A stretch of DNA of 64,000 nucleotides from Streptomyces tsukubensis (GTDB taxonomy: Bacteria; Actinomycetota; Actinomycetes; Streptomycetales; Streptomycetaceae), in the NCBI RefSeq assembly GCF_009296025.1, contig NZ_CP045178.1:1488001-1552000 (forward strand), written 5' to 3'. Of the stretch, positions 2,478 to 58,192 are shown piece after piece; position 1 is the stretch's first letter, and every line of letters starts with the position of its first letter. A program made the translations under genes and the position numbers. The notes under the pieces are model-generated. The model made no database searches, was not told the DNA's origin, and was given only the letters and a program-made list of their open reading frames with translations.

Positions 2478-3761
2478 ATGGGTGTCGTCATCCTGCTCGT
2501 CATGGCGGCCGGTGTTGCCGCCATGCTCACGCGCAAGCTCCCCACGGCGTTCGCCCTGGTGCTGCTCGCCGTCGTCATCGCTTTTGTCTCCGGCGCACCT
2601 GTGACCGGCAAGAACAGCGTGCTCGACACGGTCCTTCAAGAGGGCGCGCCCGCGCTGGCCGCCACGATGATCGCGATCCTCTTCGGGTCGTGGCTGGGCA
2701 GACTGCTCGACGAGACGGGGATCGCGGGAACGCTCGTCCGCAAGATCGTCGAGTTCGGGGGTGACCGCCCCACCGTGGTGGCCCTTGGCGTCCTCGCGGT
2801 CTCCACGCTGATCGGTACGGTGACGGGCTCGGCGCCCGCCGCGATGCTGGCCGGCATCATCGGGATTCCGGCGATGATCGCCGTGGGCATCCCGAAGGTG
2901 ACGGCGGCGGGGACGATCCTGATGGGCATCGCGGCGGGCATGCCGTTCGAGCTGCCGGTGTGGCAGTTCTTCTCCACCGCGCTCGACCTGCCGATCCCCA
3001 CGGTCCGCGGCTTCATGCTGAAGCTGTTCCCCTTCGCCCTGGCCGCCGCCGTCCTCTTCGTCGTGATCGAGGTCAGGCGTAGGGGCGTCGTACACGCCTG
3101 GTCGCTGAAGTCCGCCCCGCGCGCGAGCCGTTCCGAGCAGCGCGCGCGGCTCGGCGACGCCCCTTGGTACGCGTTGCTGACCCCGGTGATCCCGCTGGTG
3201 CTCGCCCTCGGCTTCGAACTCGCCATCGTGCCCTCGCTGCTGGCAGGCGTGGTGTACGCGGCGGTCACCACGACCCGGCCGAGGGAGCTGAACAAGCGGC
3301 TGCTGCGGACGCTGTACGGCGGGTTCGAGGTGGCCGCGGCGCCGATCGCGCTGTTCGTCGCCATCGGGATCCTGCTGGCTGCCGTGCAGTTGCCGGGGAC
3401 GGTCGACGCCCTCGAACCGCTGGTGACGGCGGTGAGCCCGCGCAACCAGGTGCTGTTCGTGCTGGTCTTCACGGTGCTCGTACCGCTCTGTCTGTACCGG
3501 GGGCCGCTCAACGTCTACGGCCTTGGTGCGGGCATCGCGGGCGTACTGGTGGCGGCGGGCGTCTACCCGGCCATCGCCGTACTCGGCATCACCACCTCCT
3601 ACAACCAGGTCTTCGGGGTCGCCGACCCCACCAGTACGCAGACGGTGTGGAGCGCCCAGTACGCGGGGGTGTCGCCGCAGCAGGTGATGGCCCGGACGCT
3701 GCCGTACGTGTGGGGCGTCGCCCTCGCCGGGTTCTGCGTCACGGCGTCGTTGTACCTGTGA
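2478..3761 (+). CDS. IT-superfamily organic-anion permease, about 12 TM
   Basis: A 427-residue polytopic inner-membrane transporter with an in/out repeat architecture. Hydrophobic segments run from residue 3 to the C-terminus. The helical hairpin region VTGSAPAAMLAGIIGIPAM at about residues 113-133 and the paired C-terminal segment GITTSYNQVFGVADPTSTQ resemble the substrate-binding loops of the ion transporter superfamily (GntP/CitM/ArsB relatives). It is the last gene of the operon with the hydantoinase and the HExxH protein, so it probably imports the cyclic amide or exports or imports the carboxylate product. The substrate is not determinable from sequence. The stop codon lies in a degenerate repeat that continues downstream. 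Confidence 0.75.
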   Translation: MGVVILLVMAAGVAAMLTRKLPTAFALVLLAVVIAFVSGAPVTGKNSVLDTVLQEGAPALAATMIAILFGSWLGRLLDETGIAGTLVRKIVEFGGDRPTVVALGVLAVSTLIGTVTGSAPAAMLAGIIGIPAMIAVGIPKVTAAGTILMGIAAGMPFELPVWQFFSTALDLPIPTVRGFMLKLFPFALAAAVLFVVIEVRRRGVVHAWSLKSAPRASRSEQRARLGDAPWYALLTPVIPLVLALGFELAIVPSLLAGVVYAAVTTTRPRELNKRLLRTLYGGFEVAAAPIALFVAIGILLAAVQLPGTVDALEPLVTAVSPRNQVLFVLVFTVLVPLCLYRGPLNVYGLGAGIAGVLVAAGVYPAIAVLGITTSYNQVFGVADPTSTQTVWSAQYAGVSPQQVMARTLPYVWGVALAGFCVTASLYL

Positions 3762-3878
3762 GCTGACTCCCGTTACCCGGCTTGTGAGGGGCCGCTCCCC
3801 TGCCCGACCGGTGGGTGGCCCCTCGCTGACCCGACCTGTGAGCCGGCCCCTCCGTCACCTCGCCGGTGGGCGGCCCCT
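3754..3878 (+). repeat. Degenerate repeat carrying the permease stop codon
   Basis: The 10-mer ACCTGTGAGC, whose TGA is the permease stop, occurs at 3754-3763 and exactly again at 3834-3843, with a variant GCTTGTGAGG at 3780-3789. A second block, CCGGTGGGYGGCCCCTC, occurs at 3809-3825 and 3862-3878, about 53 bp apart. The region lies between the convergent permease and GntR genes. No strong terminator hairpin is evident. Confidence 0.5.
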
Positions 3879-3954
3879 CTCTTGTCCGTGAAGGGCGCCT
3901 GCCCGCGGCGGGTCCGGGGCGGGCTCCCTCCGGGCCCGCGCACGGGTCTCGGGA

Positions 3955-8802: not shown

Positions 8803-9106
8803 GCGGTCGCCCAGGTGGGTGCGGCCCGGCCGTACGGGTAAACCCGGTCGCCGATCAGGTCGTGGCCGATCGCCCACCGGGGCGCGGCCGGTCCCCCACA
8901 GGGGCGCAGCCGCTCGCTGACGCGGCCCCGGGCGTCCCTGGACATCCCTGGACATCACTGGTGTCCCGGTCGCGAGGCGTATGTGTGAGCGGCGCGTCCG
9001 TCCCCTCGCGGGGGTGGGCGCGCCGCTCACCGGTGTACGGGGGAGACGGGCGACTGTGGTGTACGGGGGTGACGGGCGACGACCGGCGGTCGTCAGAGTT
9101 CCGTCG
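8803..9106. other. Spacer between convergent idnD and APC permease
   Basis: No gene is visible. It holds two small direct repeats. A 20-nt pair resembling CCCACMGGGGCGCRGCCG lies at about 8873-8914. A 23-nt pair, GTGTACGGGGG followed by GACGGGCGAC, lies at 9032-9054 and 9058-9080. I see no convincing terminator. Confidence 0.5.
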
Positions 9107-11767: not shown

Positions 11768-12036
11768 CGCGGAATGTCCTTCACGGCACGGTCTACGAGG
11801 GCATGATCACGCGCAGTCAAGCGGTATGCACACCTCCGCGTCAAGGCCGGTCCCGTATGGGGAGCGCTCTCCAACTCCCCTTTTCCGGAACCGACTTCAG
11901 ACGCGAAAGCGCAGGTCAAGCGGAATTCCGTCTACCACTTGCATCCCTGTCCTGCGGCGCGGCGCTCCTCACCCACCACGGGCACCACGCTCCCCACGAA
12001 CCTCAGTCCTCTACCCACGCACCCCTACATATCCAC
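11768..12036. other. Spacer upstream of the TPR-like gene
   Basis: Together with the repeat array that follows, this forms the gap between two minus-strand genes. No gene is visible. It must contain the promoter of the TPR-like gene, but I cannot place -35/-10 boxes with confidence. Confidence 0.4.
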
Positions 12037-12112
12037 AGCCTCTCAGCCCACTTCACCTCGCCCACGGCCTCTCAGCCCCTCCAGCCCCTCAGCCCACGGC
12101 CCCTCAGCCCAC
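12037..12112 (-). repeat. 15-17 bp tandem repeats carrying the FAD-dehydrogenase stop codon
   Basis: On the minus strand the coding end reads GTGGGCTGAGGGGCC (12098-12112), where TGA is the stop. Related units follow downstream at 12083-12097, 12066-12082, 12052-12065 and 12037-12051. Units are 14-17 bp, three of them nearly identical (GTGGGCTGAGRGGCY). Only the first unit is partly coding. Confidence 0.75.
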
Positions 12113-13759
12113 TGCCTTCGCTGCCGCCCGGCCGGCGGCGCGTCCCGAGAAGAGGCAGCCCCCGAGGAAAGTGCCCTCCAGGGAGCGGTAGCCGTGGACG
12201 CCGCCACCGCCGAACCCCGCGGCCTCACCGGCCGCGTAGACACCGGGCAGGGGATCGCCGCCCTCCGTCAGGACGCGGGACGACAGATCGGTCTCCAGTC
12301 CGCCGAGGGATTTACGGGTCAGGATGTTCAGCCGTACCGCCACCAGTGGTCCGGCCTTCGGGTCGAGGATGCGGTGCGGGGCCGCGGCCCGGATGAGCCG
12401 GTCGCCGAGGAAGGAGCGGGCCCCCCTGATGGCGGTCACCTGGAGGTCCTTGGTGAAGGGGTTGGCGATCTCACGGTCCCTGGCGACGAGGGTGCGGCGC
12501 AGCGCCGCCTCGTCGATGAGCGGCTTGTCCGTGAGGGCGTTCATGCCCCGTACGAGCGAGGCCAGGTCCTTCTCGACGACGAAGTCGGCGCCCCGGTCCA
12601 TGAACGCCTTGACGGGTCCCGGTACCTCGGAACGCGCCCGGTCGATGACCCCGCGCACGGACTTGCCCGTGAGGTCGGGGTTCTGCTCGGAGCCGGAGAG
12701 GGTGAATTCCTTGCCGATGATCCGCTGGTTCAGCACGAACCAGGTGTGGCCGTGACCGGTGCGCATGATGTGTTCCAGCGTGCCCAGGGTGTCGAATCCC
12801 GGGAAGAGCGGCACGGGCAGCCGGTTGCCGTCGGCGTCGAGCCAGAGGGACGAGGGGCCGGGCAGGATGCGGATGCCGTGCCGGGACCAGATCGGGTTCC
12901 AGTTCTCGATGCCCTCGGTGTAGTGCCACATGCGGTCGCCGTTGATGAGATGTCCGCCCGCGTCGCCCGTCACCTTGAGCATCGCTCCGTCCACGTGGGC
13001 GGGCACGCCGGAGAGCAGCTTCTGCGGCGGCGAGCCGAGCCGCTCCGGCCACTGGGCCCGTACGAGGTCGTGATTGCCGCCGATACCTCCGGAGGAGACG
13101 ATCACCGCCTGCGCCCGCAGTTCGAAAGAGCCGGTGACCTTCCGGCTGCTCGCCGCGCCGCGCGCGCTTCCGGAGGGTGCGAGGACTTCGCCGCTGACGG
13201 TGTCGACCCCGCCCGCGCTGCGCGAGAGACCGGTGACGCGGTGGCGGAAGCGGAACGTGACGAGGCCGCGTTCGGCCCCGGCCCGCACCCGGCGTTCGAA
13301 CGGGGCGACGATCCCCGGACCCGTACCCCAGGTGATGTGGAACCGCGGAACCGAGTTGCCGTGGCCCTGCGCGTCGTAGCCGCCCCGTTCGGCCCAGCCG
13401 ACGACGGGGAAGAACCGGACGCCCTGGCCGCGCAGCCAGGACCGCTTCTCGCCGGCCGCGAAGTCGACGTAGGCCTCGGCCCAGCGACGCGGCCAGTAGT
13501 CCTCGTCCCTGTCGAAACCGGCGGTACCGAGCCAGTCCTGAAGGGCCAGGTCACGGCTGTCCTTCACCCGCAGTCTGCGCTGCTCGGGCGAGTCGACGAA
13601 GAAGAGCCCCCCGAAGGACCAGTGGGCCTGGCCACCGAGGGACTGTTCGGGTTCCTGGTCGAGAAGGATCACGCTGCGTCCCGCGTCGACCAGCTCCGCG
13701 GTCGCGGCCAGACCGGCGAGTCCCGCACCGATCACGATCACGTCTGCGTCGTACGCCAT
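12104..13759 (-). CDS. FAD-binding dehydrogenase, ketosteroid-dehydrogenase/fumarate-reductase type
   Basis: A 551-residue flavoprotein of the FAD_binding_2 family. The N-terminal dinucleotide motif VIVIGAGLAGLAA is at about residues 7-19. The C-terminal FAD segment is LPGVYAAGEAAGFGGGGVHGYRSLEGTFLGG. Homologues are annotated only as FAD-binding dehydrogenases related to 3-ketosteroid delta-1-dehydrogenase, and the substrate is unknown. There is no signal peptide, so it is cytosolic. The ATG at 13759 is the first codon of the Rossmann strand. It is divergent from the DMT transporter. Confidence 0.87.
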   Translation of the reverse strand: MAYDADVIVIGAGLAGLAATAELVDAGRSVILLDQEPEQSLGGQAHWSFGGLFFVDSPEQRRLRVKDSRDLALQDWLGTAGFDRDEDYWPRRWAEAYVDFAAGEKRSWLRGQGVRFFPVVGWAERGGYDAQGHGNSVPRFHITWGTGPGIVAPFERRVRAGAERGLVTFRFRHRVTGLSRSAGGVDTVSGEVLAPSGSARGAASSRKVTGSFELRAQAVIVSSGGIGGNHDLVRAQWPERLGSPPQKLLSGVPAHVDGAMLKVTGDAGGHLINGDRMWHYTEGIENWNPIWSRHGIRILPGPSSLWLDADGNRLPVPLFPGFDTLGTLEHIMRTGHGHTWFVLNQRIIGKEFTLSGSEQNPDLTGKSVRGVIDRARSEVPGPVKAFMDRGADFVVEKDLASLVRGMNALTDKPLIDEAALRRTLVARDREIANPFTKDLQVTAIRGARSFLGDRLIRAAAPHRILDPKAGPLVAVRLNILTRKSLGGLETDLSSRVLTEGGDPLPGVYAAGEAAGFGGGGVHGYRSLEGTFLGGCLFSGRAAGRAAAKAVG

Positions 13760-15695: not shown

Positions 15696-16115
15696 GTGAA
15701 AGACGACGTCAGCGGCACCGCACGGAGTTCTTTCGCGGGCTCGGTGCGGTGCTGGTTCGCCCCGGAAAAGCTGGCCGAGGAAGGCGATACGCCCGACTAC
15801 CGGTTCTCGCTGGCCAACGAGCGCACCTTCCTCGCCTGGCTGCGGACGGCGCTCGCGCTGATCGGCGGCGGCTTCGCCGTCGACCAGTTCCTGCCTGACC
15901 TGCGGTGGGGTTGGCGGGTGGGGCTCGCCCTCGCGCTGCTCGCCGTGGGAGTTCTGTGCGCGCTGCGCGCCGTCAACCACTGGGTGCGCTGCGAGCGGGC
16001 CATGCGTCGCGGCGAGGATCTGCCCGTCTCACGCTTCCCCGCCCTGCTGGGTCTCGTGGTCGCGGTGGTGGCGCTGACGATGGTGGTGATCGTGTTGTTC
16101 GGGTGGGCCGGATGA
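15696..16115 (+). CDS. DUF202 (YidH-like) membrane protein
   Basis: 139 residues with three hydrophobic segments. The DUF202 signature LANERTFLAWLRTALALIGGG is at about residues 41-61. The GTG start at 15696 gives a short hydrophilic N-terminus. The stop overlaps the next gene's ATG (ATGA), so the two DUF202 proteins are translationally coupled and probably interact. Function of the family is unknown. Confidence 0.85.
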   Translation: MKDDVSGTARSSFAGSVRCWFAPEKLAEEGDTPDYRFSLANERTFLAWLRTALALIGGGFAVDQFLPDLRWGWRVGLALALLAVGVLCALRAVNHWVRCERAMRRGEDLPVSRFPALLGLVVAVVALTMVVIVLFGWAG

Positions 16116-16453
16116 CGGAGGCGCCGGACGCGGGCGCCACACCCGCCGTTCCGCCGCGCGACCCCGGCCTCCAGCCCGAGCGCACTCGGCTGGCCTGGCG
16201 CCGTACGACTCTCTCGTGCACGGTGGCCGCCATCCTCGCGGCGAAGGCGGCCGTGGCCGGGGGTGTCGGCCCCTGGAACATCACGGCCGGCGTCTGCTGC
16301 GCCCTGGCCTGGGCCGCTTTCCTGGCCGTGGCTCAGGCACGCGCCCGAGGACTCACCACCGCCCGCCCCGCCGTGCTCTCCCACGGCCTCGCCCTGGGAG
16401 CGGTGCTGTGCACGGTGGCACTGGCGGTCTTCGCGGCGGTTGTCATCGTCTGA
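16112..16453 (+). CDS. Second DUF202 membrane protein
   Basis: 113 residues. The segment LQPERTRLAWRRTTLSCTVAAILAAK is the DUF202 core, with RTRLAWRRT in place of RTFLAWLRT. Three hydrophobic segments follow. The ATG overlaps the stop of the preceding DUF202 gene by 4 nt. The stop codon (16451-16453) lies inside the first unit of a 41-bp tandem array that fills the downstream spacer. Confidence 0.85.
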   Translation: MTEAPDAGATPAVPPRDPGLQPERTRLAWRRTTLSCTVAAILAAKAAVAGGVGPWNITAGVCCALAWAAFLAVAQARARGLTTARPAVLSHGLALGAVLCTVALAVFAAVVIV

Positions 16454-16734
16454 GGCGGTCGCCCTCACCCGAGGCAGCGGCCTTCATCCTCCGAGGCGGT
16501 CGCCCTCACCCGAGGCAACGGCCTTCATCCTCCGAGGCGGTCGCCATCACCCGAGGCAACGGCCATCATCCTCCGAGGCAGTCGCCATGAGGTCGCGGGG
16601 GCCATCATCGTCCGAGGCAGTCGCCCTCACCCGAGGCAGCGGCCTTCATCGTCCGAGGCGGTCGCCGCCCTCACCCTAGGCAGCGGCCTTCATCGTCCGA
16701 GGCGGTCGCCATCAGGTCGCGGCGATTGCCATCG
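16449..16734 (+). repeat. 41-bp tandem array, seven units, carrying the DUF202 stop codon
   Basis: Units start at 16449, 16490, 16531, 16572, 16611, 16652 and 16696, with spacings 41, 41, 41, 39, 41 and 44 bp. Each begins TCYGAGGCRGTCGCC, and most contain an ACCCGAGGC core before a CATC end. The first unit is half coding: its TCTGAGG contains the TGA stop, and later units have TCCGAGG. The period is not a multiple of three, and open frames across it are shadows. There are no spacers between units. Confidence 0.9.
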
Positions 16735-16939
16735 TCCGCGGCGGCCGCCACCGAGCACTGCCGGTCTCACGTCGCCCGAGGCGCCCGGCCGTACGCGGCG
16801 CCCGCGCACCCGGTGTCCGCCCGTAACCAGTGGTGTCCGCCCGTACCCGGCGGCCGGGTCACGTCCCGGACGAACCCGCCCGCGCGCCCTGTCGAGGGGC
16901 CCCTCGACCCGCCCGCCTCAGCGGCCGGCGCTCGCCCCC
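16735..16939. other. GC-rich spacer before the quinone oxidoreductase end
   Basis: No gene is visible. It holds the short direct repeat TGTCCGCCCGTA (16812-16823 and 16832-16843). Confidence 0.4.
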
Positions 16940-27183: not shown

Positions 27184-28578
27184 ATGGCCAACCACGCCCC
27201 GCGGCGCGAAGATGCCTTGGCATCGGACGGAGGGATGTGGGGACGCGTGGAGACAGCAGCGCGGGGCGGGGCGCCCTCCTGGACGCCGTCGTTCGACAGC
27301 GAGGGGAACCCCGACACACCGGAGGCCGACCGTCTGACAGCCGAGGCGGCCGGGAGCGGGATCACGGACCTGGTGGTGTTCGCCCATCCCTGGCACAACG
27401 ACCCTGACCTCGCCGCGGCCCTGCACAACCGCTTCCTCTCCCTGGTCGGAGAAGAGGCGGGGCCAGGTTTCGCGCTCGGGTACGCGGGGGTGTGCTGGCC
27501 CTCGATGCGGTTCGGGGGCGAACCCGAACCGGGGCTCGCGCTCGACGGCTCCACGGCGGCGGGGCCCTCGCTCGACGAGTCGACCAGGTCGGCGCTGGCA
27601 GGGGTGTTCCCCGGCTGTGAGCAGATCGTGGACGAGGCCGCTGACCTACTGCGCGGCGGGCGCGAGAGCAAGTCGGCGCTGGACGATTTCGGCCGCCTGG
27701 TGCGCCGGTTGGTCGAGGTCCGGCTGGAGGGTACGCGGGCCGCGTTCGCCTCGGACACCGAGGAGGAGCACGGGATGCCGCAGAGCGACCCGGGGATGCT
27801 CTTCGACGACGCGGCCTCCGTCTGCCGCGGTTTCACTGACGCCCTGATGGAGACCGGGGCTCCGGCCACGAAGGACGCCGTGGCGTCCGAGGCCCTCGGG
27901 CCGTTGTGGCACGGGGCGCGCGAACTGCTGCGCCAGGCGGTGTACTACGCGCTGAAGCGGCGTGCGGGCGCGGTGGGGCAGCTCGGTCTCGGTCCGCTGC
28001 TCGGGCGGGTGGCGCGGGAGGCCCCGCGGGTGCGGGTGCACCTGGTCGGCCACAGTTCGGGGGCGCGGCTCGTGGCGTTCGCGCTGCGCGGGCTCCCGTC
28101 AGGAGTGGAGACGGTCGCGTCCGTGACTCTGCTCCAGCCCGCTTTCTCGCACTACGCGTTCGCCTCGCACATGCCCTACCAGTCACGTGGCGGCGGGGTA
28201 CTGCGTGAGCAGGCGAGGCGGGTGGCGGGGCCTGTGGTCTGTGCCACCTCGCGCCATGACACGGAGCTGCGGGTGTTCTATCCGCTGGCGTCCAGGATGG
28301 GCGGGGACGTGTCGGGGCTGATGGGCCCGGGGCACAAGTGGGGCGCCCTCGGCTACAACGGCTTCCAGGCGGTGGAGGGCACCCGGCATCTGTCGCTGGA
28401 GTCGGCGCTCAAGGAGGGCCTGGGCGGGGGCGGATGTGTGAGCGTCGACGCGTCGGCCGTGGTGCGCGAGGGGCCCTCGCCGGTCGGCGCGCATCACGAC
28501 ATCTGCCACCGGGAACTGGCCGCGCTGGTGGCGACGGCAGGCCGTTTCGGCCGGGCCGCCGCCACCAAGGGCACCTGA
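27184..28578 (+). CDS. Alpha/beta-hydrolase-like hypothetical protein
   Basis: A 464-residue soluble protein. A nucleophile-elbow motif GHSSGARLVAFALRGL lies near residue 288 after the strand VRVHLVGH, as in alpha/beta hydrolases. An N-terminal strand DLVVFAHPWHND (about residue 61) resembles the oxyanion-loop region. Long helical inserts occupy the middle. A candidate His is in VEGTRHLSLES. The substrate is unknown. The start is uncertain: ATG 27184, ATG 27235 and GTG 27247 are in frame and none has a well-spaced ribosome site. The last codons and the stop are the first unit of a 36-bp tandem repeat. Confidence 0.72.
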   Translation: MANHAPRREDALASDGGMWGRVETAARGGAPSWTPSFDSEGNPDTPEADRLTAEAAGSGITDLVVFAHPWHNDPDLAAALHNRFLSLVGEEAGPGFALGYAGVCWPSMRFGGEPEPGLALDGSTAAGPSLDESTRSALAGVFPGCEQIVDEAADLLRGGRESKSALDDFGRLVRRLVEVRLEGTRAAFASDTEEEHGMPQSDPGMLFDDAASVCRGFTDALMETGAPATKDAVASEALGPLWHGARELLRQAVYYALKRRAGAVGQLGLGPLLGRVAREAPRVRVHLVGHSSGARLVAFALRGLPSGVETVASVTLLQPAFSHYAFASHMPYQSRGGGVLREQARRVAGPVVCATSRHDTELRVFYPLASRMGGDVSGLMGPGHKWGALGYNGFQAVEGTRHLSLESALKEGLGGGGCVSVDASAVVREGPSPVGAHHDICHRELAALVATAGRFGRAAATKGT

Positions 28579-28650
28579 CAACCCGGCCGGGCCGCCGCCA
28601 CCAAGGGCGCCTGACGACTTGGCCTGGCCGCCGCCACCGAGGTGCCTGAC
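28549..28650 (+). repeat. 36-bp-period tandem repeat carrying the hydrolase stop codon
   Basis: A block starting GGCCGGGCCGCCGCCACC and ending CCTGAC occurs at 28549-28579, 28585-28615 and (one base shorter, diverged) 28621-28650. In the first copy CCTGAC contains the TGA stop. The two following copies lie in the spacer. Confidence 0.85.
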
Positions 28651-28752
28651 GGTACGCGCGGTCGGACCACGCGTACCGTCAGGCGTCAACGGGCCGACCG
28701 GCGGGGCCCGACCGATGGAGCGGGACGGGCGTGGCTGGTCAGCGACGCGGGG

Positions 28753-31602
28753 TCAACGGTGTGAAGGGAACTCCACGACCTGCTGGTAGGTGGGCCGGTT
28801 CTGCCACTGGAACGGCTTGTGCGTGACGCCGCCGAGGGCCCGGTGGATGATGGCGTCCGAGCACCACTGGTCGCCGGCCTTGCAGGAGTCGTCCCCCGGA
28901 TAGACCTCGGTCGCGGGCAGCGCGGCGGCCTCCCCGAGGGTCTTCAGCAGCGTGTCCCTGCACGCGGAGACGGAGCCCGCGCCGCAGTAGTCGTCACCCA
29001 GGGGCCCCTTCACCGGTTCACCGAGCACCTTGCGCAGATCCTTGTCGACATATCCCCACCAGCCGTACTGGAAGGCGGAGCCGGCGTGCGCACCGGTCGG
29101 CCCGTGGGCGGCGGAGGGTGACTCGTCGACGGTGAGCTGCGCGGTGAGGGCGTCGTAGAGCCCGTCCCCGAGCCCCGGCTTGAACGCGGCCTCGACCAGC
29201 CGGGGCCACCAGGCGTCCATGATCCGTACGGCGTCGGAGTGCGCGTAGGACTTCGAACCGGCCGATGTCTCGTTGCGCTTGGCCCCGCCCTCCTCCCAGG
29301 AGTCCAGCTTCTGTACGGCGGCGGCGAGGGCGGGATCGGTGACGGGGCTCTCGCGGATCACCTTCAGCAGCTCGGGCAGGACCTGTTCGCCCCGCAGGTC
29401 GGTGACGGCCGCGTCGGCCATGGCCCGGGTCAGGGAGGCACGGGTCACCCCGCCCTTCTCGACGAGTTTCCTCACCCGCCCGTCGAGCAGATCGGCCCGG
29501 TGCACCGCGCCGAGGCTGAAGTTGGCCGCGGTGTACCCCTTCGCCTGTTTGTTGTTCCAGGAGACGTAGTAGTCCTGCCCGACGGATTGCGGATGCTGCT
29601 CGGGCGGGGTCTGCGCCGAGGTGTTGTCCGCCGGGTCGAAGTCCTTCCATTCGAAGGCGCGCTCGCCCTTGACCGGCAGGGAGGCGTCGATGTCGGCGGC
29701 CCGTACCGGATTGGCGCCGCTGTTGTAGTAGGCGACGGTACGTGAGTCGGCGTAGAACCAGTTGAAGGCGTACGAGATGTGCTCGGAGGCCTGCTGGAAG
29801 GTCTTCGCGTCCGTGACGTACGACGGGTCGTTGAGCATCTGGAAGCCGACGATGGAGTCGGCCTCGTGGCGGTAGGTGGAGCGCAGCGCGGTGTACGCGA
29901 CGGGCTTGCCGCCGACCGTCGCGCGGTGCGTCACGACGCCGTACTTCGTCCGGAAGACCTGCATCCGGTAGGAGCCCGCGGCGGTGGAGTCCGCCAGGGT
30001 GGGCTTCCAGGAGTTGGTGCGTTCCAGCTTCTCCATGGGCACGCACTCGCCCCGGTAGCGGTAGTGCGTGGACTGCTTGGTCGGCGTGGAACCGTCGGGA
30101 GCGCAGAGTTCGACGGCGTACGTGTCGGTGATGTCCTGACCGGCGGAGGTGGCGCTCCAGGCGTAGTCCTGGCCCCTGCCGAGCTGCACGTACATGCCGA
30201 CGCCCGCGAAGGAGACGCCACGCGCGCTGATCCCGGGCCCCTGGAGCTCCTGCTGCATCAGCAACTGGGGTGCGAAGTAGCCGGTCTGGGGGCCGAAGAC
30301 GGCGACGGGGTGGCCGCTCGCGGTGTGTTCACCGGAGACGAGCAGGGCGTTGGACATGCCCTTCTTGGCGCTGTCCCCGCTGAAGAGGTCGGAGGGCAGG
30401 ACGCCCTTGTCGAACATGCCCTGGAGCGGCTTCAGCTTCTTCGGCGCGGAGACCGGGTCCTTGGCGGGGTTCTTCGCGCCCGCCGCTCCCGTCCTGTCGA
30501 AGACGAGGGGCTCCTTGTCCACGGAGCCGGCGTCGGGCAGGGCGGCGCCCTTGGGGTTCGCCGGCTTTCCCGCGTACGGGAAGGAGGTGCCGTCGTGGAC
30601 GGTGAGGACGGTCTCGGGATCCTCACGGCCGCGGAAGGACTCCCACACCTCGGTGCCCTTCGCCACGCCGTACTTCTGCTGCGACTGGAGCAGGGACATC
30701 GCGGACTCGACCTCGCCGCCGCCCCCGTTGCCGAAGAGCCCTCCGACGACGGAGGCGAGGGCGATCATGTCGGTCACCTTGAACGGCTGGATCTCACCGA
30801 TGTTGGTGATCGCGTCGACCTTCCCGGTCAGCACGTACTCGCCGGGGAAGTAGCGGCCCTTCTTGGACTTCTCCCGGTAGGAGTTGAGCCCGTCGATGTA
30901 CGCCTGGGCGTCTTCCATGGCTTGCGCGCCGCGCGCGCCGTTGTGCGCGCGGATGTAGTCGACCTGTTTCTGGAGGTCGTCCTCGGTGTAGGGGGCCTGA
31001 GGCCAGAACTCCTGTTCCAGACCCTGGTTGGCGAGGGCCCCGCCCGCGAAGGAGGTCAGCTCGCCGCGACCGATGTGCCGGAAGAGGTCGATGAGCCACA
31101 GCCGGTCCTGCCCTGCGGCGTAACCGGCGCCGAACTCCGTGCCGTAGCGGGTGGAGCCCTCGATGTGCGGGATGCCGTTCTTCTTGTCCCTGGTGATCGT
31201 CACGTCGTCGCGGGGCTTGGTGACGGAGCCGGTCTGCCCCTCGGCGACGCCGAAGGACTCGTCCCCGAAGTAATCACCCAGGTTCCCGTCGGTGAGTGAG
31301 GGGTAGCCGGAGGAGAGCGCGGCGTAGGGACCGAGCTGGTCCTCCGCGTGTGCCGGCTGGGTACCGAATACCCGGTGGGCCAGGATCTCGGCGAGGGTGG
31401 CGCTGCCGTTGGCGCCCGGCGGCAGGATGTCGGCGCACTGCCCTTCGCAGTGGTCGGTGACGGCGGCCGCGGATTTCCCCGCGGTATTCGCGGAGGCGTG
31501 CGGCAGTGGTGAGAGCAGTCCGGTGGTCAATGCGAACACAGCGGTGGCGATGAGGGTTCCCGTGGCGGTGCGCGCTCTGGTGCGGGGGTGGTGCCTTGGC
31601 AT
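28753..31602 (-). CDS. Secreted penicillin-acylase-family amidase
   Basis: A 949-residue Ntn-hydrolase precursor. A Sec-like signal (TLIATAVFALTTGLLSPLPHASA) covers residues 17-39. The alpha-subunit motif GIPHIEGSTRYGTEFGAGYAAGQDRLWLIDLFRH is conserved. The nucleophile is probably Ser418 in KKGMSNALLVSG, which autoproteolysis would expose as the beta-chain N-terminus. The precursor is longer than classical penicillin G acylase (about 850). Streptomyces relatives cleave N-acyl-homoserine lactones, aculeacin or acyl side chains of lipopeptides, so quorum quenching or acyl recycling are options. The ATG at 31602 follows a GGGAGG site. The gene stands alone. Confidence 0.9.
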   Translation of the reverse strand: MPRHHPRTRARTATGTLIATAVFALTTGLLSPLPHASANTAGKSAAAVTDHCEGQCADILPPGANGSATLAEILAHRVFGTQPAHAEDQLGPYAALSSGYPSLTDGNLGDYFGDESFGVAEGQTGSVTKPRDDVTITRDKKNGIPHIEGSTRYGTEFGAGYAAGQDRLWLIDLFRHIGRGELTSFAGGALANQGLEQEFWPQAPYTEDDLQKQVDYIRAHNGARGAQAMEDAQAYIDGLNSYREKSKKGRYFPGEYVLTGKVDAITNIGEIQPFKVTDMIALASVVGGLFGNGGGGEVESAMSLLQSQQKYGVAKGTEVWESFRGREDPETVLTVHDGTSFPYAGKPANPKGAALPDAGSVDKEPLVFDRTGAAGAKNPAKDPVSAPKKLKPLQGMFDKGVLPSDLFSGDSAKKGMSNALLVSGEHTASGHPVAVFGPQTGYFAPQLLMQQELQGPGISARGVSFAGVGMYVQLGRGQDYAWSATSAGQDITDTYAVELCAPDGSTPTKQSTHYRYRGECVPMEKLERTNSWKPTLADSTAAGSYRMQVFRTKYGVVTHRATVGGKPVAYTALRSTYRHEADSIVGFQMLNDPSYVTDAKTFQQASEHISYAFNWFYADSRTVAYYNSGANPVRAADIDASLPVKGERAFEWKDFDPADNTSAQTPPEQHPQSVGQDYYVSWNNKQAKGYTAANFSLGAVHRADLLDGRVRKLVEKGGVTRASLTRAMADAAVTDLRGEQVLPELLKVIRESPVTDPALAAAVQKLDSWEEGGAKRNETSAGSKSYAHSDAVRIMDAWWPRLVEAAFKPGLGDGLYDALTAQLTVDESPSAAHGPTGAHAGSAFQYGWWGYVDKDLRKVLGEPVKGPLGDDYCGAGSVSACRDTLLKTLGEAAALPATEVYPGDDSCKAGDQWCSDAIIHRALGGVTHKPFQWQNRPTYQQVVEFPSHR

Positions 31603-37647: not shown

Positions 37648-38289
37648 ATGGCCCGACCGCGCAAGCCCCTCCTCAGCAGAGACCGCATCGTCACCGCGGC
37701 GGCGGCGCTGGTGGACTCGGAAGGACTCGCCGCGGTCTCCACCCGACGGCTCGCCGCCGAGCTGGGGGTGAGCGGCCCTTCGCTCTACAACCACTTCAGA
37801 ACGATGGACGAGATTTTGGAGGCGGTCGCCGACGCGGTCAGCGCCCAGGTCGACCTGTCGATGTTCGAGGGCGGCGGGGACTGGCGCACGGCCCTCGGTG
37901 ACTGGGCCGTCTCCTATCGCGCGGCCCTCACCCGGCACCCGAACATCGTCCCTGTGCTGGCCAGGGGCCCCGGCCGCAGACCAGCGGGGCTACGGCTGGC
38001 AGACGCGGTGTTCGGCGCGATGACCGCGGCCGGCTGGCCCCCCGCGCAGGCCACCTCCATCGGCGCCGTGATGAGGTACTACGTCCTCGGCTCCGCGCTC
38101 GGTTCCTTCGCGGGCGGCTTCGTGGACGACGCGAGCGCGTACGACCCGGCCGACTACCCGCACCTGGGCCAGGCGCACCTGCTGGCGGAACACCAGGACA
38201 GGGTGGACGAACGCGCCTTCGACACCGGATTGCGGGCGCTGCTCGACGGGTTGCAGCTCCAGTACGAACTGGTGGCGGTGCACGGCTGA
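37648..38289 (+). CDS. TetR-family regulator divergent from acyl-CoA dehydrogenase
   Basis: 213 residues. The N-terminal HTH is RIVTAAAALVDSEGLAAVSTRRLAAELGVSGPSLYNHFRTMDEILEAV (residues 12-59), and the C-terminal part is the TetR_C tetracycline-repressor-like type. The ATG at 37648 gives the usual MARPRKPLLSR start but has no ribosome site, so it may be leaderless; an in-frame ATG at 37621 is inside the operator. It probably represses the divergent dehydrogenase and the alcohol dehydrogenase at 39911, which share its operator motif. Beyond its stop lies a 27-bp repeat array. Confidence 0.87.
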   Translation: MARPRKPLLSRDRIVTAAAALVDSEGLAAVSTRRLAAELGVSGPSLYNHFRTMDEILEAVADAVSAQVDLSMFEGGGDWRTALGDWAVSYRAALTRHPNIVPVLARGPGRRPAGLRLADAVFGAMTAAGWPPAQATSIGAVMRYYVLGSALGSFAGGFVDDASAYDPADYPHLGQAHLLAEHQDRVDERAFDTGLRALLDGLQLQYELVAVHG

Positions 38290-38296: not shown

Positions 38297-38419
38297 CACG
38301 TGGGCGGCCGGGCCGCCGGTCGACACGTGGGCGGCCGGGCCGCCGGTCGACACGTGGGCGGCCGGGCCGCCGGTCGGCACGTGGGCGGCCGGGCCGCCGG
38401 TCGACACGTGGGCGGCCGG
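38297..38419 (+). repeat. 27-bp tandem array, four and a half units, 8 nt after the tetR stop
   Basis: Units start at 38297, 38324, 38351 and 38378, with a partial unit at 38405. Each reads CACGTGGGCGGCCGGGCC then GCCGGTCGA (one G variant). Every unit holds two palindromes, CACGTG and GGCGGCCGGGCCGCC, so the transcript could form serial hairpins in the gap between convergent genes. The period permits an open frame on both strands, but these are repeat artefacts. Confidence 0.92.
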
Positions 38420-38513: not shown

Positions 38514-38603
38514 GCCACGTGAGCCACGTGAGCCACGTGAGCCACGTGGGCCACGTGGGCCACGGGGTGACGTCGGCTGCGTGGGTGACGTCGGCTGCGT
38601 GGG
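38514..38603 (+). repeat. 9-bp and 18-bp tandem repeats rich in CACGTG
   Basis: GCCACGTGA-type 9-mers run in six copies from 38514 to 38567 (the last three vary). They are followed by two exact copies of TGACGTCGGCTGCGTGGG (38568-38585 and 38586-38603). With the 27-bp array upstream they fill most of the 334-nt gap. No gene is visible here. Confidence 0.88.
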
Positions 38604-41282: not shown

Positions 41283-42743
41283 ATGACCGATGAACAGCCG
41301 CAGGACGTACGGGAAGCACGGGACGCACAGGACGCACAGGACGCACGAGGCGTACGGAACGCACGGCAAGCACGGGACGCACGGGACGCACGGGACGCAC
41401 GCGGGGACGCGTCCGCCGACGCCACCACCGAGGCGAGCAAGACCGCTGCGGGCCTCGGCCATCTCACCGGCTTCGGGAACGAGCACAGCTCGGAGGCGGT
41501 CCCCGGCGCCCTCCCCCTGGGCCGCAACTCCCCGCAGCGCGCGCCTCTGGGCCTCTACGCGGAGCAGCTCAGCGGCACCGCGTTCACCGAGCCCCGCGCC
41601 CACAACCGGCGCTCCTGGCTCTACCGCGTCCGGCCCTCCGCCGCCCACCCGCCGTTCACCCGGATCAGCAACGGGGCCGTGCGGGGCGCCCCGTTCACGG
41701 AGACGGTGCCCGACCCCAACCGGCTGCGGTGGGACCCGCTGCCCGATCCCGCGCCAGGCACGGACTTCCTCGCCGGGCTGTGGACCCTGGGCGGCAACGG
41801 GAACGCGACCGAGCGCGCGGGCATGGCGGTGCACCTCTACCACGCCAACGCGGACATGACCGGCCGGGTGTTCGGGAACTCCGACGGTGAGCTGCTGATC
41901 GTCCCGGAGCGGGGCGGACTGCTGCTGCGTACGGAGTTCGGCCTGTTGAGCGCCGCCCCCGGCGAGGTGGCGCTGATCCCCCGGGGCGTCCGCTTCCGTG
42001 TGGAGCTTCTCGAAGACAGCGCGCGGGGATACGTCTGCGAGAACTACGGCCGCCCCTTCCAACTCCCCGATCTCGGCCCGATCGGCGCCAACGGCCTCGC
42101 CAACGCGAGGGACTTCCGCGCCCCGACAGCCGCCTACGAGGACCACGAGGCGCCGACCGAGGTGGTCAACAAGTACGCGGGCAACCTGTGGAGCGCCGTC
42201 TACGACCACTCTCCGCTCGACGTCGTGGCCTGGCACGGCAACCACGTCCCCTACGTCTACGACCTGCGCCGATTCAACGTCATCGGCAGCGTCAGCCACG
42301 ACCACCCGGATCCGTCGATCTTCACGGTGCTCACCTCGCCCTCCGACACCCCGGGGCTGGCCGGCGTCGATTTCGTGGTGTTCGCGCCACGCTGGCTGGT
42401 GGGCGAGGACACCTTCAGGCCGCCGTACTTCCACCGCAATGTGATGAGCGAGTACATGGGGCTCATCGAGGGTGCCTACGACGCGAAGACAGGCGGTAGG
42501 GGCGGTTTCGTGCCGGGCGGCGGCTCGCTGCACGGCATGATGTCCGCGCACGGCCCCGACCACGCCACGTTCGAACGGGCGAGCGCGGCGGAGCTGCGAC
42601 CGCAGAAGGTCGACGACGGCCTCGCCTTCATGTTCGAGACCCGGTGGCCGGTGACGATCACCGCGCAGGCGGCGGAGGCCGACCACCTCCAGAGGGGCTA
42701 CGACGACGTGTGGCAGGGTCTTGAGCGCCACTTCCGCCCCTGA
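41283..42743 (+). CDS. hmgA: Homogentisate 1,2-dioxygenase
   Basis: Opens the ring of homogentisate to maleylacetoacetate in tyrosine/phenylalanine breakdown; a cytosolic Fe(II) enzyme. 486 residues. The core is unmistakable: [42 protein letters not shown] from about residue 61, [18 protein letters not shown] with metal His and Glu, and the downstream [14 protein letters not shown] with the third ligand. The length exceeds the usual 430-445 because of an N-terminal insert of about 45 residues made of Asp-Ala-Arg repeats (about 8-41). The promoter has a perfect palindrome. A GntR/UTRA gene follows 40 nt after the stop. Confidence 0.95.
41301..41409 (+). repeat. 9-bp coding repeats in the hmgA N-terminus
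   Basis: Imperfect GGACGCACN 9-mers encode runs of D-A-R and D-A-Q at residues 8-41 of the dioxygenase. The units are a multiple of three, so the frame is kept. The conserved fold begins only at about residue 58. Confidence 0.8.
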
Positions 42744-43610: not shown

Positions 43611-44813
43611 GTGACCGACGACGACACGCCTCTGCTCGACGACCTCATGCCCTGGTCGGTTGCGCCGCCCCGGCCGGGGCGCGCGTGGCCGCTCGCGGCG
43701 GACGCCCCGTCGCTGCGGGCGCGCTGGGCGGCGTTCCTCGCGGCGGGGCGCGAGGAACGGGAGACGCTGCTCGAACCGAGCAGGGCGAGGGGGCTGCGCT
43801 CGGCCGTGCCCCAACTGCCGGGCCTGCCCTCGGGCACGACGAGGCTCGCCCATGAACAGGGGCCGTGCGCCGACCCCGTACGGGTGGCCTTCGGCCCCTT
43901 CGACGAGCGGTGGCTGCTGCCCGATCAGCGGCTGCTCGACCACGCGCGCCCCGAGTTGTGGCGCGTGGCGGACGCGCGACAGCTCTTCGTCGTGGAGCGC
44001 GGCCGGGTGCCCGAAGGTGAGTTCCCCCGGTTCACGGCGAGCGGCAGGGTCCCGTTCGGCTTCGGCGGGCAGTCCCGTGTCCGGCCGCTCTACCGCAGGC
44101 CGGGCGGGGGCGCCCCGAACATCGCCCCGGGCCTGCTCGACCACCTCGGCGGTCTTTACGGCAGGACCCCTGATCCTGAGGAGCTGCCCGCCTGGATTCT
44201 GGCGAGGGGCCGCGGGGGGCCGTCCGGCAACGAGGTGCCGCTGCCCAGGGACGGTGCGGCGTGGGAGCGCGGTGTGGCGGCGGGCCGTGCGCTGCTGCTC
44301 CCCCTGCTGCGGGGCGCGCACGGCGCACGGCGGCCCCGGCTGCCCGGTGGCAGGCGGCCCTATGTGCGGGCCCAGCTCCCGGTGGGCCCGAACTCTTCCG
44401 CGCCCCCGTTGGCGTACGACCGGGAGAGCGAGGAGCTGCGGGTGGGCGAAGGCGGGGTGATCTCGCCCGTGGCGGCGGATGCCTGGGAGTTCCGTGCGGA
44501 CCGTGAGCGGGTCGTGGAGCGGTGGTTCGCCGACCGGACGTCGGGGGCCGCCTCGGGCCTGGCCGCCATCGGCCCCGCGGGCTGGCCCCAGGAGTGGACG
44601 TCGGAGCTGCTCGAACTGTTGACGGTGCTCGCGCTGGTGGCCGAGGCGGACCGGGAGGCGCGCGCGACGGGGCCGGACGGGCTCGGCCCGCTCGTCGGCG
44701 TACGGGAGCTGCGCGAGGCGGGCGTCCTGCCGGTGGACCGGGCGGCCAGGCGCCCCGCTTCGGTACTCGACCACCCCGAAGAAGGCCCCGACGGACAGTT
44801 CGCCCTGCTGTAG
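43611..44813 (+). CDS. Stand-alone type-ISP restriction enzyme C-domain-like protein
   Basis: 400 residues. The sequence resembles the C-terminal target-recognition domain of type ISP restriction-modification enzymes: LMPWSVAPPRPGRAWPLAADAPSLRARW at the start, CADPVRVAFGPFDERWLLPDQRLLDHARPELWRVAD, and RPLYRRPGGGAPNIAPGLLDHLGGLYG. No nuclease, helicase or methyltransferase motif is present here or next door, so any DNA modification activity would need partners elsewhere. Such isolated proteins occur widely in Streptomyces, and their function is unknown. The assignment is from memory of the family pattern. The stop lies in a 16-bp tandem repeat. Confidence 0.65.
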   Translation: MTDDDTPLLDDLMPWSVAPPRPGRAWPLAADAPSLRARWAAFLAAGREERETLLEPSRARGLRSAVPQLPGLPSGTTRLAHEQGPCADPVRVAFGPFDERWLLPDQRLLDHARPELWRVADARQLFVVERGRVPEGEFPRFTASGRVPFGFGGQSRVRPLYRRPGGGAPNIAPGLLDHLGGLYGRTPDPEELPAWILARGRGGPSGNEVPLPRDGAAWERGVAAGRALLLPLLRGAHGARRPRLPGGRRPYVRAQLPVGPNSSAPPLAYDRESEELRVGEGGVISPVAADAWEFRADRERVVERWFADRTSGAASGLAAIGPAGWPQEWTSELLELLTVLALVAEADREARATGPDGLGPLVGVRELREAGVLPVDRAARRPASVLDHPEEGPDGQFALL

Positions 44814-44868
44814 GGCGCCCCTGCTGTAGGGCTTCCCTCGCTGTAGGGATCCCTGCTGTAGATCGCAC
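44805..44868 (+). repeat. 16-bp tandem repeat, four units, carrying the stop codon
   Basis: Units at 44805-44820, 44821-44836, 44837-44852 and 44853-44868, all close to CTGCTGTAGGGCNNCC. The TAG in the first unit is the stop of the preceding gene. The other three units lie downstream. Confidence 0.92.
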
Positions 44869-57200: not shown

Positions 57201-58160
57201 GTGCTGGCCCTGGCCTGCTGGGGCTGGTGGCGACGGCGGGAGGCCAGGTACAGCGAACGCGCGCTGATCGTCCTCACCTTCGTGCCCTTCCTCGGTTTCG
57301 GTCTGCAGTCGTACGGCGGCGAGATGGCGCTGCGTGTCTTCATGTTCGCCCTGCCGGGGGCCGCGCTGCTCGCGGGGCTCGCGCTGTTCCCGCGTGCGGG
57401 GGTGACAGCGGAGGAACGCGACAAGGACAAGCTGTCCCTGGCGCCGCTGGCCGCGCTGCTGGTGGGGCTGCTGCTCATGGGCGGCTTTCTGGTGGCCAGA
57501 TGGGGCAATGAACCGTTCGAACGGACCCGCGCGGGCGAGGTCGCGGCCATGGACTTCGTCTACGCCCACGACGATCCGACGGTACGGGTGCTGTGGATGA
57601 GCAACGACACCGTGGACAACGTGACCCCCGCGATGCCGTGGGGGGCGAAGGACATGGAGAAGGTGAGCTACGTCCCCACGCTCGCGCCGGTCGATCCGGT
57701 GCTGGTGTCGGGGCTGGTGAAGGCGCTCAAGGACGCGGGACCGCACTCCTACCTGATGGTCAACCGGAGCCAGTCGGTCTATCTCCAGCTCGACGCGGGC
57801 TACTCCAGGGGCTGGCAGCAGCGGCTGACCGCCAACCTGGACGCGCGGCCCGAGCTGACGAAGTCGTTCACCAACACGGATGTCGCGATGTACGCACTGC
57901 GGAGTCAGCCGGACGGCCCGGTGGAGAAGGCCGATCCGGGTCCTGTGGGGCCGCAGGTCACCTGGACACCGTGGACGGTCGTCGGCGGGATCGCCGCCCT
58001 GGCGCTGGTCTTCCTGCTCACGGCGCGGGAGATCGTCCGGGTGGCGGTCCGTCCTGGGATGCGTAAGCTCCGCTGGCTTCAGTCCACGTTCTGGTTCTCG
58101 CTCCCGCTGCTCGCGGTGGTGCTGGCCGCGCTGGTGCAGCGGTTCATGACGATGGCGTGA
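54231..58160 (+). CDS. Flippase and polymerase-like membrane fusion protein, 1309 aa
   Basis: A very large polytopic protein. Residues about 38-440 form a Wzx/MATE-like polysaccharide flippase with 12-14 hydrophobic segments (ALMLNTGISAVLGLGFWLAAARHYTEASVGQGSA; the GVFGAGYADAATPLLRWFAGGALLRVVMEVYFGVLRAQ region). Residues about 445-635 are a Ser/Pro/Gly-rich linker. Residues about 640-1090 form a second membrane module of roughly 10-12 segments with loops LQWxxFLDYIDRTG-like and QDYFSPQGYTYLLYL, followed by an extracytoplasmic domain (about 1096-1240) and two final spans. The second half resembles GT-C or O-antigen-polymerase-like proteins only in layout. The GTG at 54231 lies within the end of the deacetylase gene. 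Probably it flips and then extends or transfers the lipid-linked glycan. Confidence 0.85.
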   Translation: MSDTTTAQKESRTPEPPRRPGGLGRLRLPGKGGGGGSPLFRNAYALMLNTGISAVLGLGFWLAAARHYTEASVGQGSAAIAAMKLIAGLTAVTLTGALARFIPVSGRTTGRLIFRTYAGSSLIVAVAAGVFLATLDLWGPSYRFLHGPLTGLGFVAAVIAWSLLTLQDGVLTGLRSALWVPVGNTVFSAVKLVLLVALAAAIPTAGVFVSWVAAIAVSVVPLGWLVFRRLVPRHVKATERSAHPPTVREMGRFLAGDYTGSLFSLAVVYLVPVLVASQVSAADNAYFYITTTIGGTVNLLAINMGASLTVEGSHDPARLAANTRAALRRMARIMLPICGLLFLGAPYILGVFGAGYADAATPLLRWFAGGALLRVVMEVYFGVLRAQSRTSGLAYLQGLLCVLVLGLTLLLLPRMGLTGAGVAEISSLAVIASIASVKLLGVLRAAPRSAAPPEDALPAGSEVPVGPGPEPASTAVSASAALSGPVPPVDEGPAAGRRHGPSWALRASLEPDTINMGVLPSLEHQELRPDVRPGPGTPAGGVPVVDLDAEDSRTEELGARVLGVTDPGTQEFGRSELGGKDIGGAELGAALGTARESGAGTGPPSSPSPLPSPSSPSVNVATVVGEEEPPRFPAGLRLRRPSVRSGVLWALLAVALGLYWAPLGGIGESQLDRMGGLGLITILPMPTLAGAVLLVCVFAGLLWMDRPHRALLLVTLAATVVSLHALPAVLEAQPRFATAWQHLGFLDYIDRTGTAVPDLDARWSWPGFFAAASFIASACGFSDLSGLLRWWPLIMQLAYLAPMFLLLRSVRGGWRGKWSGLWIFALSGWVGQDYFSPQGYTYLLYLAFVAILLVWFRAPRTLWVRRRPGEAEVLPTDRRARATLLLVLIALFAATVPAHQLTPFVMLGVLIVLVLVGRSELRGLPMLFAMMVAVWIGLFAEPYWSGHFDELFGGIGGVGGNVTSSVSGRIEGGSSTHQLVLYARVAMAGGVLALACWGWWRRREARYSERALIVLTFVPFLGFGLQSYGGEMALRVFMFALPGAALLAGLALFPRAGVTAEERDKDKLSLAPLAALLVGLLLMGGFLVARWGNEPFERTRAGEVAAMDFVYAHDDPTVRVLWMSNDTVDNVTPAMPWGAKDMEKVSYVPTLAPVDPVLVSGLVKALKDAGPHSYLMVNRSQSVYLQLDAGYSRGWQQRLTANLDARPELTKSFTNTDVAMYALRSQPDGPVEKADPGPVGPQVTWTPWTVVGGIAALALVFLLTAREIVRVAVRPGMRKLRWLQSTFWFSLPLLAVVLAALVQRFMTMA

Positions 58161-58163
58161 GGC

Positions 58164-58192
58164 GGGGCGCGGGGCACGGGGCGCGGGGGCAC
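58164..58192 (+). repeat. 14-15 bp duplication directly after the fusion-protein stop
   Basis: GGGGCGCGGGGCAC (58164-58177) is followed by GGGGCGCGGGGGCAC (58178-58192), beginning 3 nt after the stop codon. Confidence 0.65.

What the first reader, a model, noticed from the sequence alone, without database searches (positions are those of the whole stretch)
3754..58192. Stop codons repeatedly sit inside or beside short tandem arrays at gene 3' ends
At five genes (stops at 3761, 12104, 16453, 28578, 44813) the stop codon is part of the first unit of a tandem or near-tandem repeat that continues only downstream. At two more (38289, 58160) an array starts 3-8 nt after the stop. The repeats share no sequence and have periods of 14 to 54 bp, so this is not a dispersed element. 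It looks like repeated local duplication seeded at the stop and tolerated or selected in 3' UTRs, perhaps forming serial RNA structures, protecting mRNA ends or guarding against readthrough. I know no described mechanism that fits.
Basis: partly seen in the sequence, partly recalled or inferred. Interest (0 to 1): 0.72.

Follow-up and report, generated by a model that had tools for sequence, protein, structure and literature searches.

The report
Tandem repeats crossing gene stop codons
Short DNA repeats pile up after genes in this Streptomyces, often copying the last codons and the stop, most likely because such duplications leave the protein unchanged and so persist, rather than because the repeats do a job.

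Summary
In 1.664 Mb sampled from this genome, tandem arrays span 56 of 963 stop codons, 7 of 951 starts and 44 of 4755 random internal codons; two other Streptomyces samples agree. Shuffled intergenic DNA gives about 30 times fewer arrays. Seeding at the stop is not supported as the main cause: arrays fill 3' noncoding DNA generally, and the number spanning stops is close to a null that only spares coding sequence (convergent gaps here 28 vs 24.2 expected). An excess of array edges within 15 nt of stops in this genome remains unexplained. Repeat units show no excess structure or frame-keeping, most share no sequence, and at two orthologous stops they differ between species. One relative's amidase gene has its last 22 coding bases copied exactly after the stop, another has CAGGTGA (last codons plus stop) six times. 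Perfect noncoding duplications have junction homology of 4 bp or more in 57-61%, against 3.8% by chance. Best reading: slippage between short direct repeats, invisible to translation when it straddles a stop, tolerated at 3' ends and purged from genes and promoters.

The parts
12033..12116 (-). Array, period 15, 5.5 copies, spanning the stop (12104) of the minus-strand FAD-binding dehydrogenase gene 12104-13759
   Evidence: TRF; NCBIfam PRK12834 equivalog; at the orthologous stop relatives have different arrays or none
16443..16750 (+). Array, 41-bp period (6.6 copies in 16443-16714), spanning the stop at 16453 of a DUF202-family gene
   Evidence: TRF; Pfam DUF202 hit on ORF 15905-16453
28548..28642 (+). 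Array, 36-bp period, 2.6 copies; the first unit holds the last codons and TGA of gene 27247-28578
   Evidence: TRF; sequence; same-genus homologues align up to residues 435-442 of 443, so the stop is the real gene end
28641..28687 (.). Separate near-perfect inverted repeat (about -38 kcal/mol) just after the array, between two convergent genes: likely bidirectional terminator without a T-run
   Evidence: Fold; minus-strand self match at window 28644-28684; no T-run terminator found in 28400-28900. Function inferred
38297..38419 (+). Array, 27-bp period, 4.6 copies, starting 8 nt after the stop of a TetR-family gene (37648-38289); unit contains the palindrome GGCGGCCGGGCCGCC
   Evidence: TRF; Pfam TetR; most structured of the seven units, z -1.40
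44803..44861 (+). Array, 16-bp period, 3.7 copies of CTGCTGTAGGGC-like units, spanning the TAG stop at 44813
   Evidence: TRF; sequence
58162..58201 (+). Array, 15-bp period, 2.7 copies, directly after the stop at 58160
   Evidence: TRF
3803..3879 (+). Array, 27-bp period, 2.8 copies, 42 nt after the stop at 3761 (not spanning it)
   Evidence: TRF
38514..38603 (.). Two further arrays (9 bp x 5.7 and 18 bp x 2.2) in the same convergent gap as 38297-38419
   Evidence: TRF
8864..8917 (.). Array, 22-bp period, in a convergent gap, 61 nt after the nearest stop: not tied to a stop
   Evidence: TRF
61763..61836 (.). Array, 26-bp period, 2.8 copies, in a divergent (promoter-side) gap: counter-example to stop specificity
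   Evidence: TRF

Best explanation
These are ordinary slippage-born minisatellites whose position is set by what selection can see. Slippage or template switching between short direct repeats duplicates a local segment, mostly of about 7-60 bp. If the segment straddles a stop, the first copy keeps the reading frame and the stop, and every further copy lies in untranslated DNA, so the protein is unchanged. Such arrays can grow and decay freely. The same events inside a gene survive mainly if the unit is a multiple of three, and events near a start disturb ribosome-binding sites and promoters and are removed. Shown here: the distribution, near agreement with the placement null, difference between species at two orthologous stops, junction homology, and absence of unit-structure and frame signals. 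Inferred: that the molecular event is replication slippage and that most arrays are neutral.
For: A placement null without stop preference predicts the number of stop-spanning arrays: convergent own 28 vs 24.2, other Streptomyces 20 vs 17.1; tandem 18 vs 14.0, 10 vs 10.9. Own coverage climbs from the stop to a plateau (convergent 0.130 at 0-15 nt, 0.238 at 30-60, 0.237 at 150-250) and from starts outward (divergent 0.004 at 0-15 nt, 0.065 at 150-250). Periods divisible by three: 272/310 arrays in coding DNA, 17/56 stop-spanning, own genome. Births caught: after the amidase stop G007 has an exact 22-nt copy of its last coding bases and G001 has CAGGTGA six times, while G009, G011, G013, G003, G016 and G111 have that tail once. 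At the FAD-dehydrogenase stop 7 of 36 relatives plus the window have spanning arrays; the top-scoring relative L141 has none. Perfect two-copy noncoding duplications have junction homology of at least 4 bp in 35 of 57 and 57% of 172, against 3.8% by chance. In gaps of 200 nt or more the convergent excess shrinks here and reverses in other Streptomyces.
Against: Array edges within 15 nt of stops exceed the null in this genome (convergent 61 vs 43.4; tandem 37 vs 25.0) and in tandem gaps of other Streptomyces (28 vs 16.3); only their convergent gaps fail to show it (28 vs 32.0). With the older gene calls, array starts per uncovered kb in pooled Streptomyces were 3.64 at 0-15 nt, 2.29 at 15-30 and 0.95 at 200-300 nt after stops. 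Three of the four stop-spanning counts lie slightly above the null. In the 40 drawn stretches convergent coverage is flat to 100 nt (about 0.10) and then falls to 0.036. In gaps of 60-200 nt convergent regions carry 2-4 times the coverage of tandem gaps (own 0.153 vs 0.053, 0.261 vs 0.070; others 0.098 vs 0.046, 0.213 vs 0.090), which tolerance explains only if short tandem gaps are constrained. Only 4 of 10 perfect stop-spanning duplications have 4 bp or more of junction homology, and homology may partly be an incipient third copy. In the six Actinacidiphila/Kitasatospora loci stops (3/65) are not clearly above internal codons (12/345). Variation within a species was not tested.
Confidence: 0.78

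Rival explanations
1. The arrays are functional 3' elements: serial hairpins that end transcription or protect mRNA ends, multiplied by selection, especially between convergent genes.
For: Array coverage is highest in convergent gaps (own 0.207 vs 0.091 tandem, 0.061 divergent). The 38297 unit contains a palindrome. Array-covered convergent 3' windows still fold better than dinucleotide shuffles (mean z -0.95, 32% below -1.5).
Against: Units fold no better than shuffled units in any class (mean z 0.08 coding, -0.01 convergent, -0.02 tandem, -0.19 divergent). Array-free convergent 3' windows are more structured (mean z -1.72, 38% below -1.5, n=120) than array-covered ones (n=59). At 28578 the strong hairpin (28641-28687) is a separate element beside the array. 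Arrays at two orthologous stops are not conserved between species.
Confidence: 0.08
2. 3' ends are mutational hotspots: termination, R-loops or head-on RNA polymerases between convergent genes raise the rate of local duplication near stops.
For: Excess of array edges within 15 nt of stops in this genome (61 vs 43.4 convergent, 37 vs 25.0 tandem) and in other Streptomyces' tandem gaps (28 vs 16.3); convergent excess in short gaps in both samples.
Against: The edge excess is absent in convergent gaps of the 75 other Streptomyces stretches (28 vs 32.0), and the convergent excess is not seen there for gaps of 200 nt or more (0.098 vs 0.122; 0.067 vs 0.119).
Confidence: 0.12
3. Readthrough guard: duplicated stops are kept to catch ribosomes that pass the first stop.
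For: Array-bearing stops are followed by another in-frame stop within 20 codons in 45% (n=89) vs 19% of array-free stops (n=1461).
Against: Stops rise in all three frames (45, 37, 37%, against 19, 18, 22% without arrays), as any array carrying a stop triplet must give. Unit lengths are multiples of three in 17 of 56, 11 of 18 and 10 of 22 stop-spanning arrays in the three Streptomyces samples; the 11 of 18 is the only hint the other way.
Confidence: 0.03
4. Assembly artefacts or mis-called genes.
For: No reads were available; tandem repeats can be mis-assembled.
Against: The pattern recurs in stretches of 40 single-contig assemblies of other Streptomyces (18/423 stops vs 3/447 starts) and at annotated stops (3 of 54 in a stretch of NZ_CP023408.1, two of them by one array). 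The gene caller recovered 54 of 54 annotated stops there with no extra call. Units differ between species, which a shared artefact would not give.
Confidence: 0.02

Closest known systems
Minisatellites / variable-number tandem repeats born by slippage between short direct repeats (general knowledge)
   Same: Head-to-tail units of about 7-60 bp, local origin, short homology at the junction, noncoding bias, in-frame units in genes
   Different: Here the density at 3' ends is high and many arrays include a gene's last codons and stop
Tandem repeat regions of archaeal Borg elements (PMC9879509; search listing and passages seen)
   Same: Rapidly evolving, independently arising; [quoted passage not shown] partial flanking repeats; in-frame in ORFs, 14-38% of intergenic units divisible by three
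   Different: Borg repeats are described as perfect, A-enriched and on extrachromosomal elements; these are GC-rich, often degenerate and chromosomal
Mycobacterial rnc-fpg1 variable repeat (PMC2734929; passages seen) and MIRU (overlap with stop and start codons recalled only)
   Same: Actinobacterial intercistronic tandem repeats beginning near a stop (40 bp after the rnc stop), present in one species complex and absent in the other mycobacteria compared
   Different: MIRU is a dispersed family of related sequence (recalled); most arrays here match no other array
GC-rich intrinsic (I-shaped) terminators in Streptomyces (PMC8269248; passages seen)
   Same: Same location, GC-rich
   Different: Defined by a strong hairpin; array units have no excess structure

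Membership tests
Slippage-born minisatellite / VNTR | Head-to-tail local copies beyond chance | tested here: met
   TRF vs dinucleotide shuffles, 2.28 vs 0.08 per kb in convergent gaps
Slippage-born minisatellite / VNTR | Short homology at duplication junctions | tested here: met
   At least 4 bp in 57% of 172 and 35 of 57 perfect noncoding duplications vs 3.8% chance; 4 of 10 among stop-spanning ones; a partial third copy could add to this
Slippage-born minisatellite / VNTR | Different arrays or copy numbers between lineages | tested here: met
   Between species at two orthologous stops
Slippage-born minisatellite / VNTR | Copy-number polymorphism within one species | not testable with these tools
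   One genome per species held
MIRU-like dispersed repeat | Related unit sequence at many loci | tested here: not met
   25 of 315 arrays match another array; 9 of 446 array-free segments match another. A minority do match
Intrinsic terminator array | Each unit forms a hairpin more stable than composition predicts | tested here: not met
   Mean z about 0 by class; seven window units z -1.40 to +0.80
Intrinsic terminator array | Transcript 3' ends map to the array | not testable with these tools
   No Term-seq for this strain
   Four comparisons, P(>=observed) 0.14 to 0.70; pooled convergent 0.10, pooled tandem 0.27
   Excess in own convergent and tandem gaps and in other species' tandem gaps; none in other species' convergent gaps

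The most novel reading that the evidence does not exclude
Gene 3' ends in Streptomyces are genuine hotspots of local duplication: transcription termination or convergent transcription promotes template switching near stops, producing a standing reserve of C-terminal extensions that a single stop loss could expose, with a rate that differs between species (three times the array coverage here of that in stretches of 40 relatives).
Probability: 0.12. Interest if true: 0.6.

Novelty: new member of a known kind. Interest (0 to 1): 0.34.

Why it matters
It gives a simple rule for where tandem repeats survive in compact GC-rich genomes: a duplication that straddles a stop is invisible to translation. 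The arrays record local duplication at single-base detail, might serve as strain-typing markers, and offer a natural experiment on slippage in bacteria without a detectable MutS ATPase domain (0 of 21 genomes) and with NucS (21 of 21). Missing MutS need not be the cause, since loops of this size are thought to escape it anyway (recalled).

Tried and rejected
Stop seeding: not supported as main cause by the placement null; the edge excess is left open. RNA structure: units against shuffled units, no signal; whole 3' windows, array-covered ones less structured than array-free ones but still below shuffles. Readthrough guard: frames and periods, no consistent signal. Dispersed element: all-vs-all BLAST, mostly negative. 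Loss of mismatch repair special to this strain: NucS present and MutS undetected in all 21 genomes searched, so no difference. Chromosome position: array coverage of 3' gaps by Mb ranges 0.068-0.174, uneven, somewhat higher at 2-6 Mb. A first genome-contig search with the 27247-28578 protein found no relative. My first gene caller lost some genes by fixing starts too early; it was replaced and checked against annotation, and the final counts are. The shuffles, fold and frame tests, group table, by-Mb table and load comparison still rest on the older gene calls. Of the 80 named loci, one search used 77; L159, L182 and L212 were left out. Literature: ten searches listed no paper that I recognised as describing stop-spanning arrays in Streptomyces; I opened passages of four papers only, and the library lacks most subscription journals.
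Full report
What was checked. The window lies in an 8.63-Mb genome in two contigs and is about 72% GC. Its relatives are Streptomyces: the top record for its FAD-dehydrogenase among the 80 kept is S. solincola, 87% identical (the window's own or very near records may be left out there). TRF confirms arrays spanning the stops at 12104, 16453, 28578 and 44813, and arrays starting within 8 nt after the stops at 38289 and 58160. At 3761 the array starts 42 nt later. Gene identities: FAD-binding dehydrogenase (12104), DUF202 (16453), TetR (38289), a DctM-like transporter (3761), a Type ISP specificity-domain hit (44813) and a protein of unknown family conserved in the genus (28578). The 1309-aa protein ending at 58160 has no Pfam or NCBIfam hit at E 0.001.

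Beyond chance. I sampled 80 further 20-kb stretches, 1.664 Mb with the window, about 19% of the genome. Genes were called with a codon-usage model; on one annotated 50-kb Streptomyces plasmid stretch it recovered 54 of 54 stops with no extra call. Among genes with at least 30 nt to the next gene, arrays (TRF score 50 or more) span 56 of 963 stops, 7 of 951 starts and 44 of 4755 random internal codons. Restricting to genes scoring 40 or more gives 43/712, 5/715 and 32/4470. One 20-kb stretch from each of 40 other Streptomyces (single-contig assemblies picked from the 392) gives 18/423, 3/447 and 29/2500. The 35 named Streptomyces loci around the FAD-dehydrogenase orthologue give 22/405, 3/457 and 14/2210; that set is not independent of the finding, since up to seven of its 22 are the FAD-dehydrogenase stop itself. 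Other actinomycetes (22 loci) give 7/226, 1/266 and 16/1335. With the older caller, six Actinacidiphila and Kitasatospora loci gave 3/65, 0/81 and 12/345 (stops not clearly above internal codons), Alphaproteobacteria (7 loci) 0/70 stops and Bacilli (7 loci) 0/111 stops. Intergenic shuffles give about 30-fold fewer arrays.

Is the stop special? Array coverage in convergent gaps of this genome is 0.043 in the last 30 nt of the gene, 0.130 in the first 15 nt after the stop, 0.238 at 30-60 nt and 0.237 at 150-250 nt: a rise to a plateau, not a peak. In the 40 drawn stretches it is about 0.10 from 0 to 100 nt and falls to 0.036 at 150-250 nt. Each array was then placed at random within its own gap, allowed to reach into the gene by up to one unit. 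Stop-spanning counts: convergent own 28 vs 24.2 (sd 3.9), convergent other Streptomyces 20 vs 17.1 (2.8), tandem own 18 vs 14.0 (3.3), tandem others 10 vs 10.9 (2.6); pooled convergent 48 vs 41.4 (P 0.10), pooled tandem 28 vs 25.0. So stops are crossed about as often as free placement predicts, with a slight, non-significant surplus in three of four. Against this, edges within 15 nt of the stop are in excess in own convergent (61 vs 43.4), own tandem (37 vs 25.0) and other tandem gaps (28 vs 16.3), but not in other convergent gaps (28 vs 32.0). In tandem gaps, avoidance of the next gene's promoter would push arrays toward the stop, so I give the convergent result more weight; for this genome it remains unexplained.

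Why 3' ends. Near starts coverage is very low and climbs with distance (own divergent 0.004 at 0-15 nt, 0.065 at 150-250 nt). In coding DNA 272 of 310 arrays have periods divisible by three; stop-spanning arrays do so in 17 of 56 (11/18 and 10/22 in the two other Streptomyces sets). Perfect two-copy duplications are about nine times denser in noncoding than in coding DNA (0.355 vs 0.0406 per kb). Convergent gaps of 60-200 nt exceed tandem gaps of equal length in both samples. With gaps of 200 nt or more the difference shrinks here (0.225 vs 0.149; 0.210 vs 0.128) and reverses in other Streptomyces (0.098 vs 0.122; 0.067 vs 0.119).

Birth of an array. At the penicillin-amidase stop, G007 has an exact 22-nt copy of its last coding bases right after TGA, and G001 has CAGGTGA six times, the unit being its own last codons plus stop. 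G009, G011, G013, G003, G016 and G111 have that tail once. Of 39 loci given, 36 could be read there; 7 of the 36 have a TRF array within 320 nt downstream, with differing units; only G001's spans the stop, and the G007 duplication is below the threshold and not among them. At the FAD-dehydrogenase stop, 7 of 36 relatives have arrays spanning it at score 50 or more (L153, L156, L160, L163, L168, L172, L173), two more have one starting within 15 nt (L148, L152), and the top-scoring relative L141 has none. The repetitive alanine-rich tail of this gene probably predisposes it, and two of the seven (L160, L168) mainly extend that coding repeat. Perfect two-copy noncoding duplications show junction homology, median 5 nt, with 57% of 172 having at least 4 nt; the chance value, from random offsets in this genome's intergenic DNA, is 3.8%. 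Coding duplications are alike (56% of 108), stop-spanning ones fewer (4 of 10). Some of this may be incipient third copies, and some short-period arrays were counted at a multiple of their true period.

Structure and function. Tiled units from four classes fold like shuffled units (60 of 87 convergent, 60 of 169 tandem, 55 of 55 divergent and 60 of 260 coding arrays tested, periods 12-60). Convergent 70-nt 3' windows fold better than dinucleotide shuffles in both groups, array-free ones more (z -1.72, 38% below -1.5, n=120) than array-covered ones (z -0.95, 32%, n=59), in line with terminator hairpins separate from arrays; at 28578 such a hairpin (28641-28687) sits right beside the array. Further stops after the stop are about doubled in all frames, not in frame only.

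Conclusion. The finding is a real, widespread regularity of Streptomyces, explained most simply by homology-seeded local duplication plus the fact that translation cannot see a copy placed after a stop. Shown: distribution, near agreement with the null, difference between species at two stops, junction homology, lack of unit structure and frame. Inferred: slippage as the event, and neutrality. [quoted passage not shown] Ten searches of the held library listed no paper I recognised as describing it in Streptomyces.

Noticed in passing
own genome sample (window, L003-L082) vs L221-L260: This genome carries about three times the 3'-gap array coverage of 40 other Streptomyces stretches (0.116 vs 0.038; own 2.0-6.2 Mb stretches 0.145, older gene calls). 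Cause unknown; NucS present and MutS undetected in all 21 genomes checked.
   Followed up: partly
L074:3080-3231, L038:6099-6144, L085 amidase end: Heptamer arrays holding a stop triplet (TCAGCCG and GTCAGGC read on the + strand at minus-strand genes; CAGGTGA) recur at stops; a period of 7 puts stops in all three frames. An array at L057:18140 shares 61 identical bases with the one at L074:3080.
   Followed up: no
41303-41401: A 9-bp unit repeated 11 times lies just inside the start of the homogentisate 1,2-dioxygenase gene (41283-42743), ahead of the conserved domain that begins at residue 61, giving a repetitive N-terminal extension.
   Followed up: no
28641-28687: Near-perfect inverted repeat of about -38 kcal/mol between two convergent genes, without a T-run: probable bidirectional terminator whose stem holds the same CCTGAC as the neighbouring repeat unit.
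   Followed up: partly
Bacilli loci L186, L198, L206, L211, L213, L215, L218: Array coverage of about 0.1 in convergent and tandem gaps although no stop is spanned (0/111); possibly a few long arrays, not examined.
   Followed up: no
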